NCBI RefSeq assembly: GCF_001465795.2 | Contig: NZ_CP013659.2 | Coordinates: 693,501-757,500, forward strand | Direction of reading: 5' to 3' | Source of the DNA: Planococcus rifietoensis | GTDB lineage: Bacteria; Bacillota; Bacilli; Bacillales_A; Planococcaceae | Length of the DNA: 64,000 bases | Part shown: positions 193 through 35,809 of the stretch, in pieces | How positions within the stretch are numbered: position 1 is the stretch's first letter | Layout: each line of letters starts with the position of its first letter | Made by a program: the position numbers and the translations under genes | Notes under the pieces: generated by a model | Seen by the model: only the letters and a program-made list of their open reading frames with translations | Told to the model about the DNA's origin: nothing | Databases searched by the model: none

Positions 193-1662
193 ATGAAGTT
201 AGCTGATAAAACTGCAAGCGAATTGCAGGAATTACTACATAGCAAAGAATTGACGATTGCGGAGTTGACGGAAGCGACATTCAAGCGCATCAAGGAATTA
301 GACCCGAAAGTTGATGCCTTTTTGGCTTTGAATGAAGAGCAGGCGACAAAGCAAGCAGCTGAAATGGATCAAACGGATACAGGGGAACGTGGCCCGCTTT
401 ACGGCTTGCCGATCGGCGTAAAGGATAATATCGTCACGGAAGGACTCGAGACGACAGCATCGAGCTTGATCCTGAAAGGCTTCAACCCAATCTACAACGC
501 AACGGTTGTGGATAAATTGCGCGAAGCCGGCATGGTCATCGTCGGTAAATTGAATATGGATGAATTCGCAATGGGTTCTTCCAATGAAAACTCTTACTAT
601 AAAAACACGAAAAACCCGTGGAACTTAGAAACTGTTCCAGGCGGTTCGTCGGGCGGTTCAGCTGCGGCTGTAGCAGCAGGTGAAGTTCCGTTCACACTCG
701 GTTCCGATACAGGCGGATCCATCCGTCAGCCAGCTGCTTTTTGTGGTGTTGTCGGCATGAAGCCGACATACGGCCGTGTATCCCGTTTTGGGTTGATCGC
801 TTATGCGTCATCGTTCGACCAAATCGGCCCGATCACGCGCACGGTTAAAGACAACGCCCTTCTTTTGAATGCCATTTCCGGGCACGATGAAAAAGACTCG
901 ACATCCGCAAATGTTGAAGTGCCTGACTTCACAGCAGCACTCACTGGCGACATCGAAGGCCTTCGCATCGGTGTGCCGAAAGAATATTTCGCAGAAGGCG
1001 TCAGCGAAGCATCGAAACAAGCTGTAAAAGATGCACTGAAAGTATTGGAAGAAAAAGGCGCAACATGGGAAGAGATTTCCTTGCCGCATTCCAAATACGC
1101 GCTTTCTACGTATTACATCTTGGCTTCATCTGAAGCATCTTCCAACTTGTCCCGTTTCGACGGCATCCGTTACGGCTACCGCACGGAAAAAGCCGGAAGC
1201 TTGCTTGAGTTCTACATGAACACACGCTCTGAAGGCTTCGGCGACGAAGTGAAGCGCCGCATCATGCTCGGAACGTACGCACTCAGCTCGGGCTATTACG
1301 ACGCTTACTACAAAAAAGCGCAAAAAGTGCGTACTTTGATCAAGCAGGATTTCGATAAAGCGTTCGAAAACTTCGATGTCATCGTCGGGCCGACAACGCC
1401 GACACCGGCATTCAAGATCGGCGAAATCATCGATGATCCTTTGACAATGTATGCGAACGATATCTTGACGATTCCTGTCAACTTGGCAGGCGTTCCAGCC
1501 ATTTCAGTCCCATGCGGCTTCGAAAACGGATTGCCGCTCGGATTGCAGATCATCGGCAATTATTTCGATGAAGAAACCGTCTACCGCGTCGCGGATGCTT
1601 TTGAGCAGGCGACCGAGTTCCATAAAGAAATACCGCAAACATGGGAGGGAGCAGCACAATGA
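193..1662 (+). CDS. gatA: Glu-tRNA(Gln)/Asp-tRNA(Asn) amidotransferase subunit A
   Basis: A 489-residue glutaminase subunit of full family length. It releases ammonia from glutamine, and GatB uses the ammonia to amidate Glu-tRNA(Gln) in the cytoplasm. The amidase-signature triad is visible: Lys77 in GVKDNI, the cis-Ser at 152-153 in PGGSSGGS, and the nucleophile Ser176 in GSDTGGS. The ATG at 193 follows a GGAGGG ribosome binding site at about 181-186. Gene order gatC-gatA-gatB with an ATGA overlap to gatB implies translational coupling. A paralogous free-standing amidase lies at 12368. Confidence 0.98.
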
Positions 1663-3127: not shown

Positions 3128-3220
3128 GTGGTTTATTTTAGTGAATGCGATCCAAAAGTTAAATCTGGTAGTCGAAATGTTCTTTCCTTGAGATTCCGCT
3201 GCAAGGGGCACGCTTGAGGT

Positions 3221-3275
3221 CTGCAGGATGCAGGTCATGCAGCTGATGCGACAGGAAGTCGCGTTTTCAGCTGCC
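3221..3275 (-). ncRNA. Paired UCCU-loop hairpins, Bacillaceae-1-like RNA motif
   Basis: Read on the minus strand, an outer stem CAGCTGA/TCAGCTG encloses GCGAC-TTCCT-GTCGC. A spacer then leads to a second hairpin, CTGC-ATCCT-GCAG. The same architecture with different stem sequences occurs at 35455-35510 on the plus strand. As I remember it, the Rfam Bacillaceae-1 motif has two hairpins with RUCCU loops; here the second loop fits exactly and the first has U in place of R. No gene is next to it in a position to be regulated. Confidence 0.5.
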
Positions 3276-3319
3276 CGGGTACAGGGCGGGTGTTGAGCCA
3301 AGGTGGCTAATGTCACTGC

Positions 3320-21260: not shown

Positions 21261-21285
21261 ACACATAATAGCGGAATAATTGTAT

Positions 21286-21374
21286 ACACCACAAGGGGAG
21301 CTTTGGCTGAGAGTGAACGAGTAAGTTCTTACCCTTCGAACCTGTAAGTTAACACTTGCGCAGGGATGTGGATG
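21286..21374 (+). ncRNA. TPP (thiamine pyrophosphate) riboswitch
   Basis: A THI-box aptamer. P1 pairs CCACA (21289-21293) with TGTGG (21367-21371). The invariant blocks GGGG...TGGCTGAGA, ACCCTT-cg-AACCTG and GCAGGGA occur in the right order. Bound thiamine pyrophosphate should stabilise this fold and allow the downstream terminator to form, shutting off the thiamine transporter when the vitamin is plentiful. Confidence 0.96.
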
Positions 21375-21390
21375 GAAAACCGGCCCAAGC

Positions 21391-32659: not shown

Positions 32660-33967
32660 ATGAAAACGGATGTGTTCATCGGCGGAGGGGGAATAGGCGG
32701 GCTGACGCTCGCATTGAAACTGGCGAGGCGCGGCTTTGATGTCGTTCTGGCCGAGCGCATGGCCGTCCGCTCGCCGACCTACAAGGGAGAGTTGCTGCAG
32801 CCGAAGAGCATGCAAGTATTCGATGGCCTTAATGTATACGATGCGATTTGCGATCGGTCCAATGAAATCAAAGTGCTCGATATGCTGGAACTGTCCAGCA
32901 CCTTGAAAGTGAAAGATCAATCGTTCATGGATTACAGTGTGTTGCCCGGAAAATACAACGCCGCTTATATGATCCATCACGAAGAGCTAAAGACCATCAT
33001 TCGGAAAGCGGCTTGCGAATACGACAACTTCCGTTACTTGAAAGGCACTGCTTGCAAAGGATATACCGAAAACACCGCCATTCTTCAAAAAGGAACCGAA
33101 AAGTTCGAAGTGGAAGCCAAGTTTTTCTTCGGGGCGGAAGGCCGGTCATCGGTGACCAGAAAAGCGATGGACATCGAAGTGAAGCAGACGACGTACAACC
33201 ATCATTTCCTGACGGTGACGTTTCCTCGGGCTGAGAACTTCACGGACGGCAAGATCATCTCGACTTACAACCGCTTTCTCGGTTTATTTCCGCTTCCAGA
33301 TGACCAAGTGCGCAGCGTCTATTTGATTCCGCCAGGGGATTACAAAACCTTGAAAGAAAAGCCGATCAGCCATTTCCATAAACTTTATACCGATTTGGCA
33401 CCGGCCGTGGACGGCTATGTCCAGCGCTTGACCGACTGGAAGAAAATCCAGTTGATGATCCCGGTTATGTATCATGCTGAATCCTATGTAAAGGGCAATA
33501 AAGCAATCATCGGGGATGCGGCACATGCTGTCCATCCGATGGCGGGAGAAGGCATGAACATGGCCATACAGGACGCTGACGTTTTGGGTGAGCTTGCGGC
33601 TGACATTTTATCCGATGGAAAAATCGACCCGGAAAATCTTAAGTGGTACGAAAAAGTGCGCTACCGCCGGGCGGACCATGTCATCCAGCTAAGCCATCTG
33701 GCGGCGCTCGCCTATTCATTCCCGTATCGTCCAGTCAGCTATTTGCGCCAACGCACTTTCGAGCGCATGGAAGAAGATCCGATTCTTCATTTCAAGCAAA
33801 TGTTGAATGTCTCGGGGCTTGGCTTATGGAAAGAGAATGTCCGGGACCGCTTTATCCAAGGCGGGTTCATGCCGGTCCGCGCGAAGGAACTGACAGAAGA
33901 CACGAAAGAACTGAAATACTACAAACCGGAAGATGACTACCCGTGGAAAGTGGAGGGACTTATATGA
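32660..33967 (+). CDS. FAD-dependent monooxygenase (UbiH/PHBH-like)
   Basis: A 435-residue class A flavoprotein monooxygenase. The FAD dinucleotide fold GGGGIGGLTLALKLA is at residues about 8-22, followed by an Arg-containing RSPTYKGELLQP region. The second FAD motif IIGDAAHAVHPMAGEGMNMA is near 285-305. Such enzymes hydroxylate aromatic or quinone-like substrates with NAD(P)H and O2. The ATG 32660 has AAGGAG about 9 nt upstream. It overlaps the next gene, a methyltransferase, by 4 bp, so hydroxylation plus O-methylation of one substrate is plausible. The substrate is unknown. Confidence 0.88.
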   Translation: MKTDVFIGGGGIGGLTLALKLARRGFDVVLAERMAVRSPTYKGELLQPKSMQVFDGLNVYDAICDRSNEIKVLDMLELSSTLKVKDQSFMDYSVLPGKYNAAYMIHHEELKTIIRKAACEYDNFRYLKGTACKGYTENTAILQKGTEKFEVEAKFFFGAEGRSSVTRKAMDIEVKQTTYNHHFLTVTFPRAENFTDGKIISTYNRFLGLFPLPDDQVRSVYLIPPGDYKTLKEKPISHFHKLYTDLAPAVDGYVQRLTDWKKIQLMIPVMYHAESYVKGNKAIIGDAAHAVHPMAGEGMNMAIQDADVLGELAADILSDGKIDPENLKWYEKVRYRRADHVIQLSHLAALAYSFPYRPVSYLRQRTFERMEEDPILHFKQMLNVSGLGLWKENVRDRFIQGGFMPVRAKELTEDTKELKYYKPEDDYPWKVEGLI

Positions 33968-34962
33968 TCGATATAATGAAGATGGTAAAAGCAAGAACGT
34001 ATATGAAACGAAATGAGCCCTTCCTGTACAGCTGGCATGCTTATGTTGGCTACGAATTGGATCTGTTCAAGGCATTTGAACGCCCGATGACCCAGTTTGA
34101 TGTGGCGGATGCTTTGGAACTCGATGAGCAGTTGCTTGCGCAATGGGTAGCGATCGGCGTCTCGATCGGCTATTTAAAAGAAACCGGGCGCAACCGCTAC
34201 CAAATAAAGAACCGCTGGAAATTGCCGAAATCCAAAGGCAATAATTCATCGGGTGTATTGCTGAAGGAAATGATGGAACTGCACATTCCGACGCTTTTGG
34301 AGTACCCGAAAATGATGCGCAACCAAAGCCGTCTTCACTTTGATGAAGATGAGCACGCATCGACTGTCGCAGAAACGAGCCGTCTGCTTGAAGTATTGGC
34401 TTATCCGAAAATGGCCAAGAGATTGAAGGAAAAAGACTGCCGCCGTGTGCTTGATATCGGCTGCGGAGAAGGCGGCTACATAAAGAAATTGGGCCAGCGA
34501 TTCCCAACGACGCAATTCACGGGAATCGAAATCAGCGAAGAAGTTGTCGAGAAGGCGAAAGAACTGACAGCAAACCAAAACAACGTCTCCATCGAGCAGG
34601 CGGATTTGTGGAATTACAAACCCGAATCCCCACAAGATATGGTGATGCTCAATAACGTGCTGCATTACATCCCGCTCGAGAAGCGCCAGGCCTTGTTCAA
34701 GGAAATCAGCAGCTGGATTGCACCGGGAGGCATTTTCTCGGTCGTCACCCCAATCGCCGGCGGCCCGGACAGCCCGCCTTTCGCCAATGTCTTCAATAGC
34801 TTCTTCTCATCATTCGACAATCTCTACAGGCTGCCGAAAAGGGAAGAAGTCATCGAATGGGGCGAAGAATCAGACCTCGAAATCCTCAGCCTCCGCACCG
34901 TCATCAAAGAAGGCGGCTGGTACATCGTGCAATATGAAAAGAAAAGCGAGAGCGCCCGTTAA
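33964..34962 (+). CDS. SAM-dependent methyltransferase (winged-helix plus Rossmann)
   Basis: A 332-residue protein with an N-terminal helical/winged-helix dimerisation domain (about 1-90; WHAYVGYELDLFKAFERP, then VADALELDEQLLAQW). A class I methyltransferase domain follows, with SAM motif VLDIGCGEGGYIKKLG near 165-180 and a post-motif GIEISEEVVEKAK. The layout resembles O-methyltransferases acting on hydroxylated aromatics. It overlaps the monooxygenase by 4 bp; GGAGGG precedes the ATG. Its last codons (SESAR, stop) are encoded by the first copy of the downstream structured repeat. Confidence 0.88.
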   Translation: MIDIMKMVKARTYMKRNEPFLYSWHAYVGYELDLFKAFERPMTQFDVADALELDEQLLAQWVAIGVSIGYLKETGRNRYQIKNRWKLPKSKGNNSSGVLLKEMMELHIPTLLEYPKMMRNQSRLHFDEDEHASTVAETSRLLEVLAYPKMAKRLKEKDCRRVLDIGCGEGGYIKKLGQRFPTTQFTGIEISEEVVEKAKELTANQNNVSIEQADLWNYKPESPQDMVMLNNVLHYIPLEKRQALFKEISSWIAPGGIFSVVTPIAGGPDSPPFANVFNSFFSSFDNLYRLPKREEVIEWGEESDLEILSLRTVIKEGGWYIVQYEKKSESAR

Positions 34963-35544
34963 GCTTCGACAGGCATAAGGCGAGTTTCCGAAGCGGCGCT
35001 CTTTGCCGCACAGGAAAATTGACTTATGACCCAAGAAGCTGGGCGATCGAGCTGGACAAAGAAAAGCTGAGACAGCCATGTAGACCCGACAAGCACAAGA
35101 CGGTTTGCTGAAGCGGCGTTACTTGCCGCGTAAGCAAAATGGCTTGTGACCTCGAGGGTCTGGCTGTCGAAGCTAGCCAAAAAGAAAAGCTGAAGTGGCC
35201 GTTCTGGCTCGACAGGCGTAAGCCGAGTCCCCGAAGCGGCGTATTTCAGCCGCACAGGGGAATTGGCTTACGGCCCGAGAGTCAGGCCACTGAAGCTAGA
35301 CAATAAGAAAAGCTGAAGCAGCCGTTTAGATTCGACAGGCATAAGACGGATGGCCGAAGCGGCGCTTTTTGCCGCACAGGACAGTTGGCTTATGACCCGA
35401 GAATCTGGTTGCTGAAGCTAGACAAAGAAAAGCGAAAGCGCCCGTTTTTAGGAAGCTAACCTAAGGACGCGACGTCCTGTCGCAACGGTTAGCTGACCCA
35501 CATCCTGTGGCTCCTCGACAGGTGTAAGGCGAGTTTCCGAAGCG
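34941..35544 (+). repeat. Tandem array of a structured 120-123-nt repeat (four full copies, one interrupted)
   Basis: Unit starts, each at GAAAAGC, are 34941, 35061, 35184, 35307 and 35427. Each full copy folds into one long hairpin with nested stems. In copy 2, GACAGCC (35071-35077) pairs with GGCTGTC (35162-35168), AGACCC with GGGTCT, CACAAG with CTTGTG, TTTGCT with AGCAAA, and GCGGC with GCCGC. Other copies have different bases but keep the pairing. Copy 5 is broken by another element and lacks its 3' half. The array fills the 625-bp gap and begins inside the upstream CDS. Confidence 0.9.
35452..35512 (+). ncRNA. Paired RUCCU-loop hairpins, Bacillaceae-1-like RNA motif
   Basis: The outer stem GCTAACC (35455-35461)/GGTTAGC (35487-35493) encloses GCGAC-GTCCT-GTCGC (35469-35483). 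A second hairpin, CCAC-ATCCT-GTGG, lies at 35498-35510. Both loops fit RUCCU. The element sits within copy 5 of the tandem repeat. The same architecture with different outer and second stems occurs at 3221-3275 on the other strand. Confidence 0.6.
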
Positions 35545-35587: not shown

Positions 35588-35809
35588 TTATTTGCGCAAT
35601 GAACCGAGTTCAGAGGCAATGGCCTGCATTTCGTTCGGGCTGAAATTATCGCGATTTTTAACCATCTCGTAAATTTCACGCAAGTCTTCGTACTCGGACG
35701 TGTTGAAATGCTCTGCTTTCATTGCATCCACATTGACCATGCGCAGTTTCGTTTTTATTTCTTCAATCATAAAATCGACGTTCTCAGGTGATTGTTTGGA
35801 TAAATCCAT
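35588..35809 (-). CDS. yfkK: DUF1128 family protein YfkK
   Basis: A 73-residue soluble, charged, mostly helical protein: a [20 protein letters not shown] helix, then [20 protein letters not shown]. It belongs to the DUF1128 family and is the likely orthologue of B. subtilis YfkK, whose function is unknown. The full family length is present. On the minus strand GGAATGG precedes the start. YfkH is encoded about 2 kb away on the other strand, a partly conserved neighbourhood. Confidence 0.85.

What the first reader, a model, noticed from the sequence alone, without database searches (positions are those of the whole stretch)
34941..35544. Tandem array of a 120-nt RNA-like repeat with stems that covary between copies
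Four full copies and one broken copy lie head to tail. Sequence identity is moderate, but base pairing is conserved. The outer stem is CGCCC/GGGCG in copy 1, GACAGCC/GGCTGTC in copy 2, GTGGCC/GGCCAC in copy 3 and AGCAGCC/GGTTGCT in copy 4. The adjoining stem changes from AGCTTC/GAAGCT to AGACCC/GGGTCT to AGATTC/GAATCT. The next is CATAAG/CTTATG or CACAAG/CTTGTG, and the next TTTCC/GGAAA, TTTGCT/AGCAAA or TCCCC/GGGGA. Compensatory change in at least four stems argues for selection on structure rather than simple duplication. I recall similar units scattered in Bacillales genomes, but not a named function; the tandem arrangement may be a new structured RNA or a protein-binding array.
Basis: seen in the sequence. 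Interest (0 to 1): 0.78.

Follow-up and report, generated by a model that had tools for sequence, protein, structure and literature searches.

The report
Mobile hairpin repeat at gene ends
The tandem units are copies of what looks like a jumping, roughly 120-base DNA repeat that folds into one long hairpin, is scattered through many Bacilli genomes, and often sits exactly at the end of a gene; I found no name for it.

Summary
Four full units (120-123 nt) lie head to tail at 34939-35424; a fifth, partial unit is split by a known element, Rfam RF01690 Bacillaceae-1. Structure is strongly supported: in 130 matches from 69 loci 34 of 36 pairs show two-sided changes, and the 27 strongest of 6,903 column couplings are all predicted pairs.

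It is no local invention. This genome (a Planococcus, judged from synteny) holds 22 units in 12 places. All 24 same-genus genomes of one search match, as do 16 of 19 genera searched in the family and 19 genomes of nine other families of the class. No Rfam family reaches its cut-off on the units.

Three of seven tested insertions have clean empty sites in relatives, and units nest inside units, so the repeat is mobile. Its 5' end lies within 4 nt of a sense stop codon in 24 of 55 arrays (nearby positions 2.6%), and in one genome right after 23S rRNA. 40 of 69 arrays are followed by the 5' part of another unit.

Best reading: a non-autonomous mobile hairpin (like bcr1, BOX, ERIC) entering gene 3' ends. 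Mobilising enzyme and any cellular function are unknown.

The parts
34939..35058 (+). unit 1; supplies the stop codon (TAA 34960-34962) of the upstream methyltransferase gene
   Evidence: 129.0 bits to model R1; ORF 33943-34962
35059..35179 (+). unit 2
   Evidence: 123.9 bits
35182..35302 (+). unit 3
   Evidence: 128.7 bits
35305..35424 (+). unit 4
   Evidence: 133.9 bits
35425..35544 (+). unit 5: 5'-partial unit (unit positions 1-22 and 28-57) split by Bacillaceae-1
   Evidence: direct repeats D4 and D6; only 14.5 bits, E 0.056, to R1
35445..35511 (+). Bacillaceae-1 RNA (RF01690), with a CGACGTCCTGTCG hairpin like CGTC-tagged REPs
   Evidence: 71.8 bits, E 3.1e-11; the CGTC-REP likeness is by eye against passages of PMC3733652
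35551..35589 (.). terminator-like inverted repeat after the array
   Evidence: 17-nt arms, 94% complementary
33943..34962 (+). upstream methyltransferase gene; its last codons lie in unit 1
   Evidence: PF13649, E 1.9e-19
35588..35809 (-). downstream convergent DUF1128 gene
   Evidence: PF06569, E 1.2e-33

Best explanation
The unit is a non-autonomous mobile element of about 120 nt (about 150 nt with its 3' tail in some genera) that forms one long hairpin on one strand. It spreads through Bacilli chromosomes, often lands with its 5' end at the 3' end of a gene (stop codon; also 23S rRNA and, once, a tRNA), and multiplies head to tail. Shown: dispersal, present/empty sites, nested copies, a strand-biased structure under selection, a polarity of arrays (5' parts at the downstream end), and frequent placement right after a stop codon. 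Inferred: the folded single strand (RNA or ssDNA) is what an unknown mobilising enzyme recognises. Inferred, less sure: once inserted, the co-transcribed hairpin acts as a 3'-UTR or intercistronic processing or stability element, as reported for BOX, ERIC and REP. In the window the array lies between the stop codon of the methyltransferase gene and a terminator-like hairpin, so it is probably that gene's 3' UTR.
For: Copies: 22 sense-strand units in the own genome; 11 to 90 matches, 90 being the scoring cap and a few being antisense echoes, in each of 24 same-genus genomes; 191 of 250 genomes and 16 of 19 genera of the family; 19 genomes of nine other families among the 40 matching of 299 in the class. 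Mobility: clean empty sites for 3 of 7 tested insertions (23, 2 and 2 of the 30 loci fetched); nested units. Structure: the 27 strongest of 6,903 couplings are structure pairs; 34 of 36 pairs with two-sided change; on 125 sense rows G.U 262 cells against A.C 30, or 162 against 30 without one loop-closing pair. Placement: 5' end within 4 nt of a sense stop codon in 24 of 55 arrays (21 of 52 with strict grouping), 3' end within 4 nt of an antisense stop in 1 of 55, nearby positions 2.6%; in another family 4 of 7 first-of-array units (7 picked by eye from 15 loci) have a stop codon 1 nt upstream; the unit starts at the 23S end in both rrn operons read, with 8 equal-scoring copies in that genome, and in L091 3 nt after a tRNA-Met gene. 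Polarity: 40 of 69 arrays are followed by the 5' part of a unit, 2 of 69 in the control, 0 of 69 preceded by a 3' part.
Against: No consistent target-site duplication (8 of 41 share a 5-mer, null 5.2, P 0.13). No mobilising enzyme found: a Y1 transposase gene occurs in 16 of 24 genomes but not in unit-rich G017 and G008, and none of 10 such loci has a unit or Bacillaceae-1 beside it. For four of seven tested insertions no clean empty site was fetched. No blastn match in plasmids or phages. Arrays persist at the same sites between species, which a purely parasitic repeat need not do. TAA is not clearly enriched among the stop codons abutted (14 of 19 against 29 of 53 window ORFs, P 0.18). No expression data were available.
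Confidence: 0.76

Rival explanations
1. A host-serving 3'-UTR RNA element (mRNA stabiliser, RNase III or Mini-III substrate, or attenuator). Structure is kept in place by selection on gene expression; mobility is only its origin.
For: Frequent place right after a stop codon, and between operon genes such as atpG-atpD and rpmI-rplT (AtpG and L20 by Pfam, atpD and rpmI named by eye). At the atpG-atpD slot 5 species keep the hairpin with 8 of 34 pairs changed on both sides and 9 of 170 cells broken.
Against: At the same slot others of the 30 loci read carry stubs, hybrids or type II units. Of 81 arrays (orthologs included, ORFs called mechanically) 24 lie antisense between co-directional genes and 7 between divergent genes. 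Gene conversion from other copies could mimic in-place selection; not tested.
Confidence: 0.3
2. A ligand- or protein-binding regulatory RNA array.
For: Conserved internal-loop letters (AAAAGC, cGACagGC, GACcCgAG) beside covarying stems.
Against: Dispersed, in varied orientation to genes, and present or absent at one site between species. Functions of the flanking genes were not surveyed.
Confidence: 0.05
3. An ordinary MITE of a transposase with terminal inverted repeats; units without the 3' tail are truncated copies.
For: In several genera the unit is followed by a tail ending TTATACTTTCTTAT, inverted to the 5' ATAAGAAA: 57 pattern rows (two places listed twice) in 10 of 17 genomes against 7 for the reversed pattern; 8 of 94 arrays against 4 of 561 windows, P 4e-5.
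Against: Not every pattern match follows a unit (L247, L252, L253). Exact tail pattern absent from the own genome, and only one Planococcus array (L052) shows it. No target-site duplication.
Confidence: 0.3

Closest known systems
bcr1-bcr18 repeats of the Bacillus cereus group
   Same: 100-400 bp intergenic repeats, bcr1 with mobile traits; 40-51% of copies in two strains found in mRNA, as UTRs, within operons or in ORF-less transcripts (passages of PMC3446304 and PMC6542083)
   Different: bcr mobility is linked to TTTAT motifs and bcr repeats are described as specific to the B. cereus group; the present unit shows no consistent flanking duplication and spans at least ten families. Sequences not compared
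BOX elements of Streptococcus pneumoniae
   Same: structured, co-transcribed; in 36 cases BOX supplies a gene's stop codon (passages of PMC3049150)
   Different: BOX is modular (boxA, tandem boxB, boxC); here whole units repeat in tandem
ERIC (127-bp enterobacterial repeat)
   Same: similar size, intergenic, inserted into operons (passage of PMC3049150; size from the listing of PMC2759123, where RU-1 is ERIC by recall)
   Different: other phylum; no tandem arrays recalled. Sequences not compared
Bacillaceae-1 RNA (RF01690) and CGTC-tagged REPs
   Same: found inside unit 5 and, by eye, inside other units
   Different: a separate 67-nt element; units 1-4 do not match its model

Membership tests
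Any Rfam 15 family | match above the gathering score | tested here: not met
   only Bacillaceae-1 within unit 5; over units 1-4 only sub-threshold matches, best mir-191 at 23.1 bits against 54; in 10 other loci no match lies on a unit listed
bcr1 | flanking TTTAT-type target repeats | tested here: not met
   no consistent flanking repeat; bcr consensus sequences not compared
MITE | terminal inverted repeats | tested here: inconclusive
   present as a 3' tail in some genera, not found in the own genome
MITE | target-site duplication | tested here: not met
   8 of 41 against null 5.2, P 0.13
REP with RAYT transposase | Y1 transposase gene flanked by the repeat | tested here: not met
   10 Y1 loci fetched of 18 matches, no unit and no Bacillaceae-1 beside them
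REP (GTAG/CGTC) | 20-40 bp palindrome with a GTAG or CGTC tag | tested here: not met
   the unit is about 120 nt and begins AAGAAAAGC
small interspersed mobile repeat (general kind) | dispersed, intergenic, insertion polymorphism | tested here: met
mobile element | demonstrated transposition | not testable with these tools
   needs an experiment

The most novel reading that the evidence does not exclude
A mobile element that copies itself in a one-ended way from a folded RNA or ssDNA strand: a fixed 5' end aimed at gene 3' ends (stop codon, mature rRNA or tRNA end), a variable 3' end (unit n times plus the 5' part of a unit), and a leading AAG that restores a TAA stop when inserted after the T of a stop codon. 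It would be a new transposition mode tied to gene or transcript ends.
Probability: 0.14. Interest if true: 0.82.

Novelty: new variant of a known kind. Interest (0 to 1): 0.56.

Why it matters
It is a large, apparently unnamed family of covarying hairpins in Bacilli, found inside atp and ribosomal-protein operons and, in one genome, in rRNA operons. It gives a test of whether insertion near stop codons is targeted or selected, warns that covariation can come from mobile repeats, and shows a host structure in which the orphan Bacillaceae-1 RNA recurs.

Tried and rejected
Known Rfam RNA: rejected. Local tandem duplication only: rejected. Y1/RAYT transposase as mobiliser: no link seen. Target-site duplication: exact 5-nt repeats noticed by eye (L072, L108, L094, L102) did not exceed chance as a set. 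TAA preference among abutted stops: not significant. Spread on plasmids or phages: no blastn match (records very near the window's genome may be left out there). Integron attC was considered from memory and dropped because the recalled end motifs are absent; no formal test. Literature: 8 searches showed no description of this unit in their listings; subscription journals are mostly not held, so this is weak evidence of absence. The paper defining bcr1-bcr18 was seen only as a reference, and its consensus sequences were not compared.

Limits. The stop-codon count used mechanical ORFs (65 codons or more) and loci biased to the best-scoring hits. One search grouped 81 loci into 52 clusters and found 19 near a stop when only the longest upstream ORF was used. 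For one search I kept 55 representatives, three of them (L026, L103, L108) from clusters already represented; all three are among the 24, so strict grouping gives 21 of 52 (P). Two of the 24 (L053, L055), and L103, have antisense or divergent neighbours, so their sense ORF may be chance. include orthologous loci. In one search the compared length was capped near 60 nt, so the longest 'parts' may be degenerate further units. A5 holds 5 antisense hits (include them; searches do not). Cells are not independent, so the G.U P value is not used. R-scape was not available; one search is a substitute.

Full report
What is there. At 34939-35424 four units of 120-123 nt lie head to tail, each a single long hairpin with conserved internal-loop letters. 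A fifth is a 5'-partial unit split by Bacillaceae-1 RNA. The first unit overlaps the end of a methyltransferase gene and supplies its stop codon; a terminator-like inverted repeat follows.

Structure. On 15 units of this genome 22 of 36 pairs change on both sides and 97.2% of cells pair. On 130 matches from 69 loci of many genera (127 distinct rows), 34 of 36 pairs do so and 95.2% of cells pair. In an APC-corrected coupling test on 68 sense units filtered at 85% identity the 27 strongest of 6,903 column pairs are all structure pairs; 7 of the 36 rank between 32 and 101 and 2 rank low (993 and 2,679). The call did not name the low ones; pairs 7-221 and 8-220 hardly vary. On 125 sense rows G.U cells (262) outnumber A.C cells (30); 100 of the G.U cells come from one loop-closing pair, and without it the ratio is 162 to 30 (with antisense rows gave 262 to 40). 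So the sense strand is the one that folds. The strongest coupling outside the structure joins unit positions 3 and 119 (G with C in 92, T with T in 22 of 125), the two termini.

Distribution. 22 sense units in 12 places of the own genome (the list also holds one antisense echo and two weak fragments). 24 of 24 same-genus genomes and 0 of 16 others in the first relatives search. Family: 191 of 250 genomes, 16 of 19 genera. Order: 199 of 261, all matching genomes in the same family. Class: 40 of 299, of which 19 lie in nine other families. Phylum, with a broader model: 5 of 398, all five in the window's class. Searches of more than 40 genomes used stricter filters that lose weak matches. The genus name is inferred from 14 syntenic contigs titled Planococcus or Planomicrobium. 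A second core type (CGACAAGCGCTGGAGG / CCGAAGCGAC) occurs beside the window's type.

Mobility. Joined flanks of seven insertions were searched in 46 same-genus genomes. Three sites gave clean empty sites among the 30 loci fetched: 23, 2 and 2. For the other four sites the rows listed cover mostly one flank. Units sit inside units (L072; L144; L227 and L250, at the same place of the host unit; read by eye). At the methyltransferase slot all 14 contigs carry a unit or part of one, from a partial unit (L071, 18.5 bits) to four, with units that look hybrid or exchanged. At atpG-atpD 30 loci (one cut by a contig end) show full, tandem, hybrid, nested, type II, reduced or stub forms (by eye).

Placement and polarity. 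The unit's 5' end is within 4 nt of a sense stop codon in 24 of 55 arrays (21 of 52 with strict grouping), its 3' end within 4 nt of an antisense stop in 1 of 55; nearby positions give 2.6%. Orientation over 81 loci, orthologs included: 33 sense between co-directional genes, 24 antisense, 17 between convergent and 7 between divergent genes. In genome G069 eight equal-scoring copies include two that I read, identical to each other and both starting within 1 nt of the 23S rRNA end in the 23S-5S spacer. In L091 the first unit starts 3 nt after a tRNA-Met gene and another tRNA gene lies downstream. 40 of 69 arrays are followed by the 5' part of a unit. In some other genera the unit is followed by a tail ending TTATACTTTCTTAT, inverted to the 5' end, so the complete element may be about 150 nt there (144-152 nt counted from AAAAGC in 12 rows, two of them the same places read twice).

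Mechanism. Shown: a dispersed, mobile hairpin with a preferred folding strand. Inferred: recognition of the folded strand by an unknown enzyme, and co-transcription as 3'-UTR or intercistronic RNA (most secure where the host is an operon gene or rRNA). Whether placement at stop codons is targeting or survival is open. Some arrays had hundreds of bases to the next called ORF downstream (L094 844, L100 921, L099 428), which favours targeting; 14 of 19 stops were TAA, not a clear excess over 29 of 53 window ORFs, though a leading AAG recreates TAA when inserted after the T of any stop. In-place selection has modest support (8 two-sided changes at one slot), but gene conversion is not excluded.

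Known relatives. It works like bcr1, BOX and ERIC, but of their defining features only the bcr-type flanking repeat was tested, and it was not met; their sequences were not compared. Bacillaceae-1-like cores recur inside or beside units: the window, by eye L005, L007, L008, L009 and L245, and Rfam matches near units in L093, L096 and L100. PMC3733652 reports CGTC-REP dimers inserted within palindromic sequences (passage), a useful parallel.

Noticed in passing
3220-3285 (-): A second Bacillaceae-1 RNA (36.3 bits, cut-off 35); no unit match beside it
   Followed up: partly
21284-21383 (+): TPP riboswitch (60.1 bits)
   Followed up: no
L181, L182 (G069): The unit sits at the 23S rRNA 3' end in the 23S-5S spacer; eight equal-scoring copies in that genome, two read
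   Followed up: partly
L091 (G059), 1378-1620 (-): Two units lie between a tRNA-Met and a tRNA-Glu gene
   Followed up: partly
L183 (G235:C1:1604000-1607000): Five equal-scoring units in exact 120-nt tandem, apparently a fresh amplification
   Followed up: no
L143, L145, L147 (atpG-atpD): Units reduced to the outer stem only, a mini hairpin of about 20 nt
   Followed up: no
alignment A5 columns 3 and 225: Non-pairing coupling of the two unit termini (G-C or T-T), perhaps two end types read by different enzymes
   Followed up: partly
G000:C1:2169474-2169809 (L201): A lone Y1 transposase gene, family found in 16 of 24 same-genus genomes, without a unit or Bacillaceae-1 beside the 10 loci fetched
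   Followed up: partly
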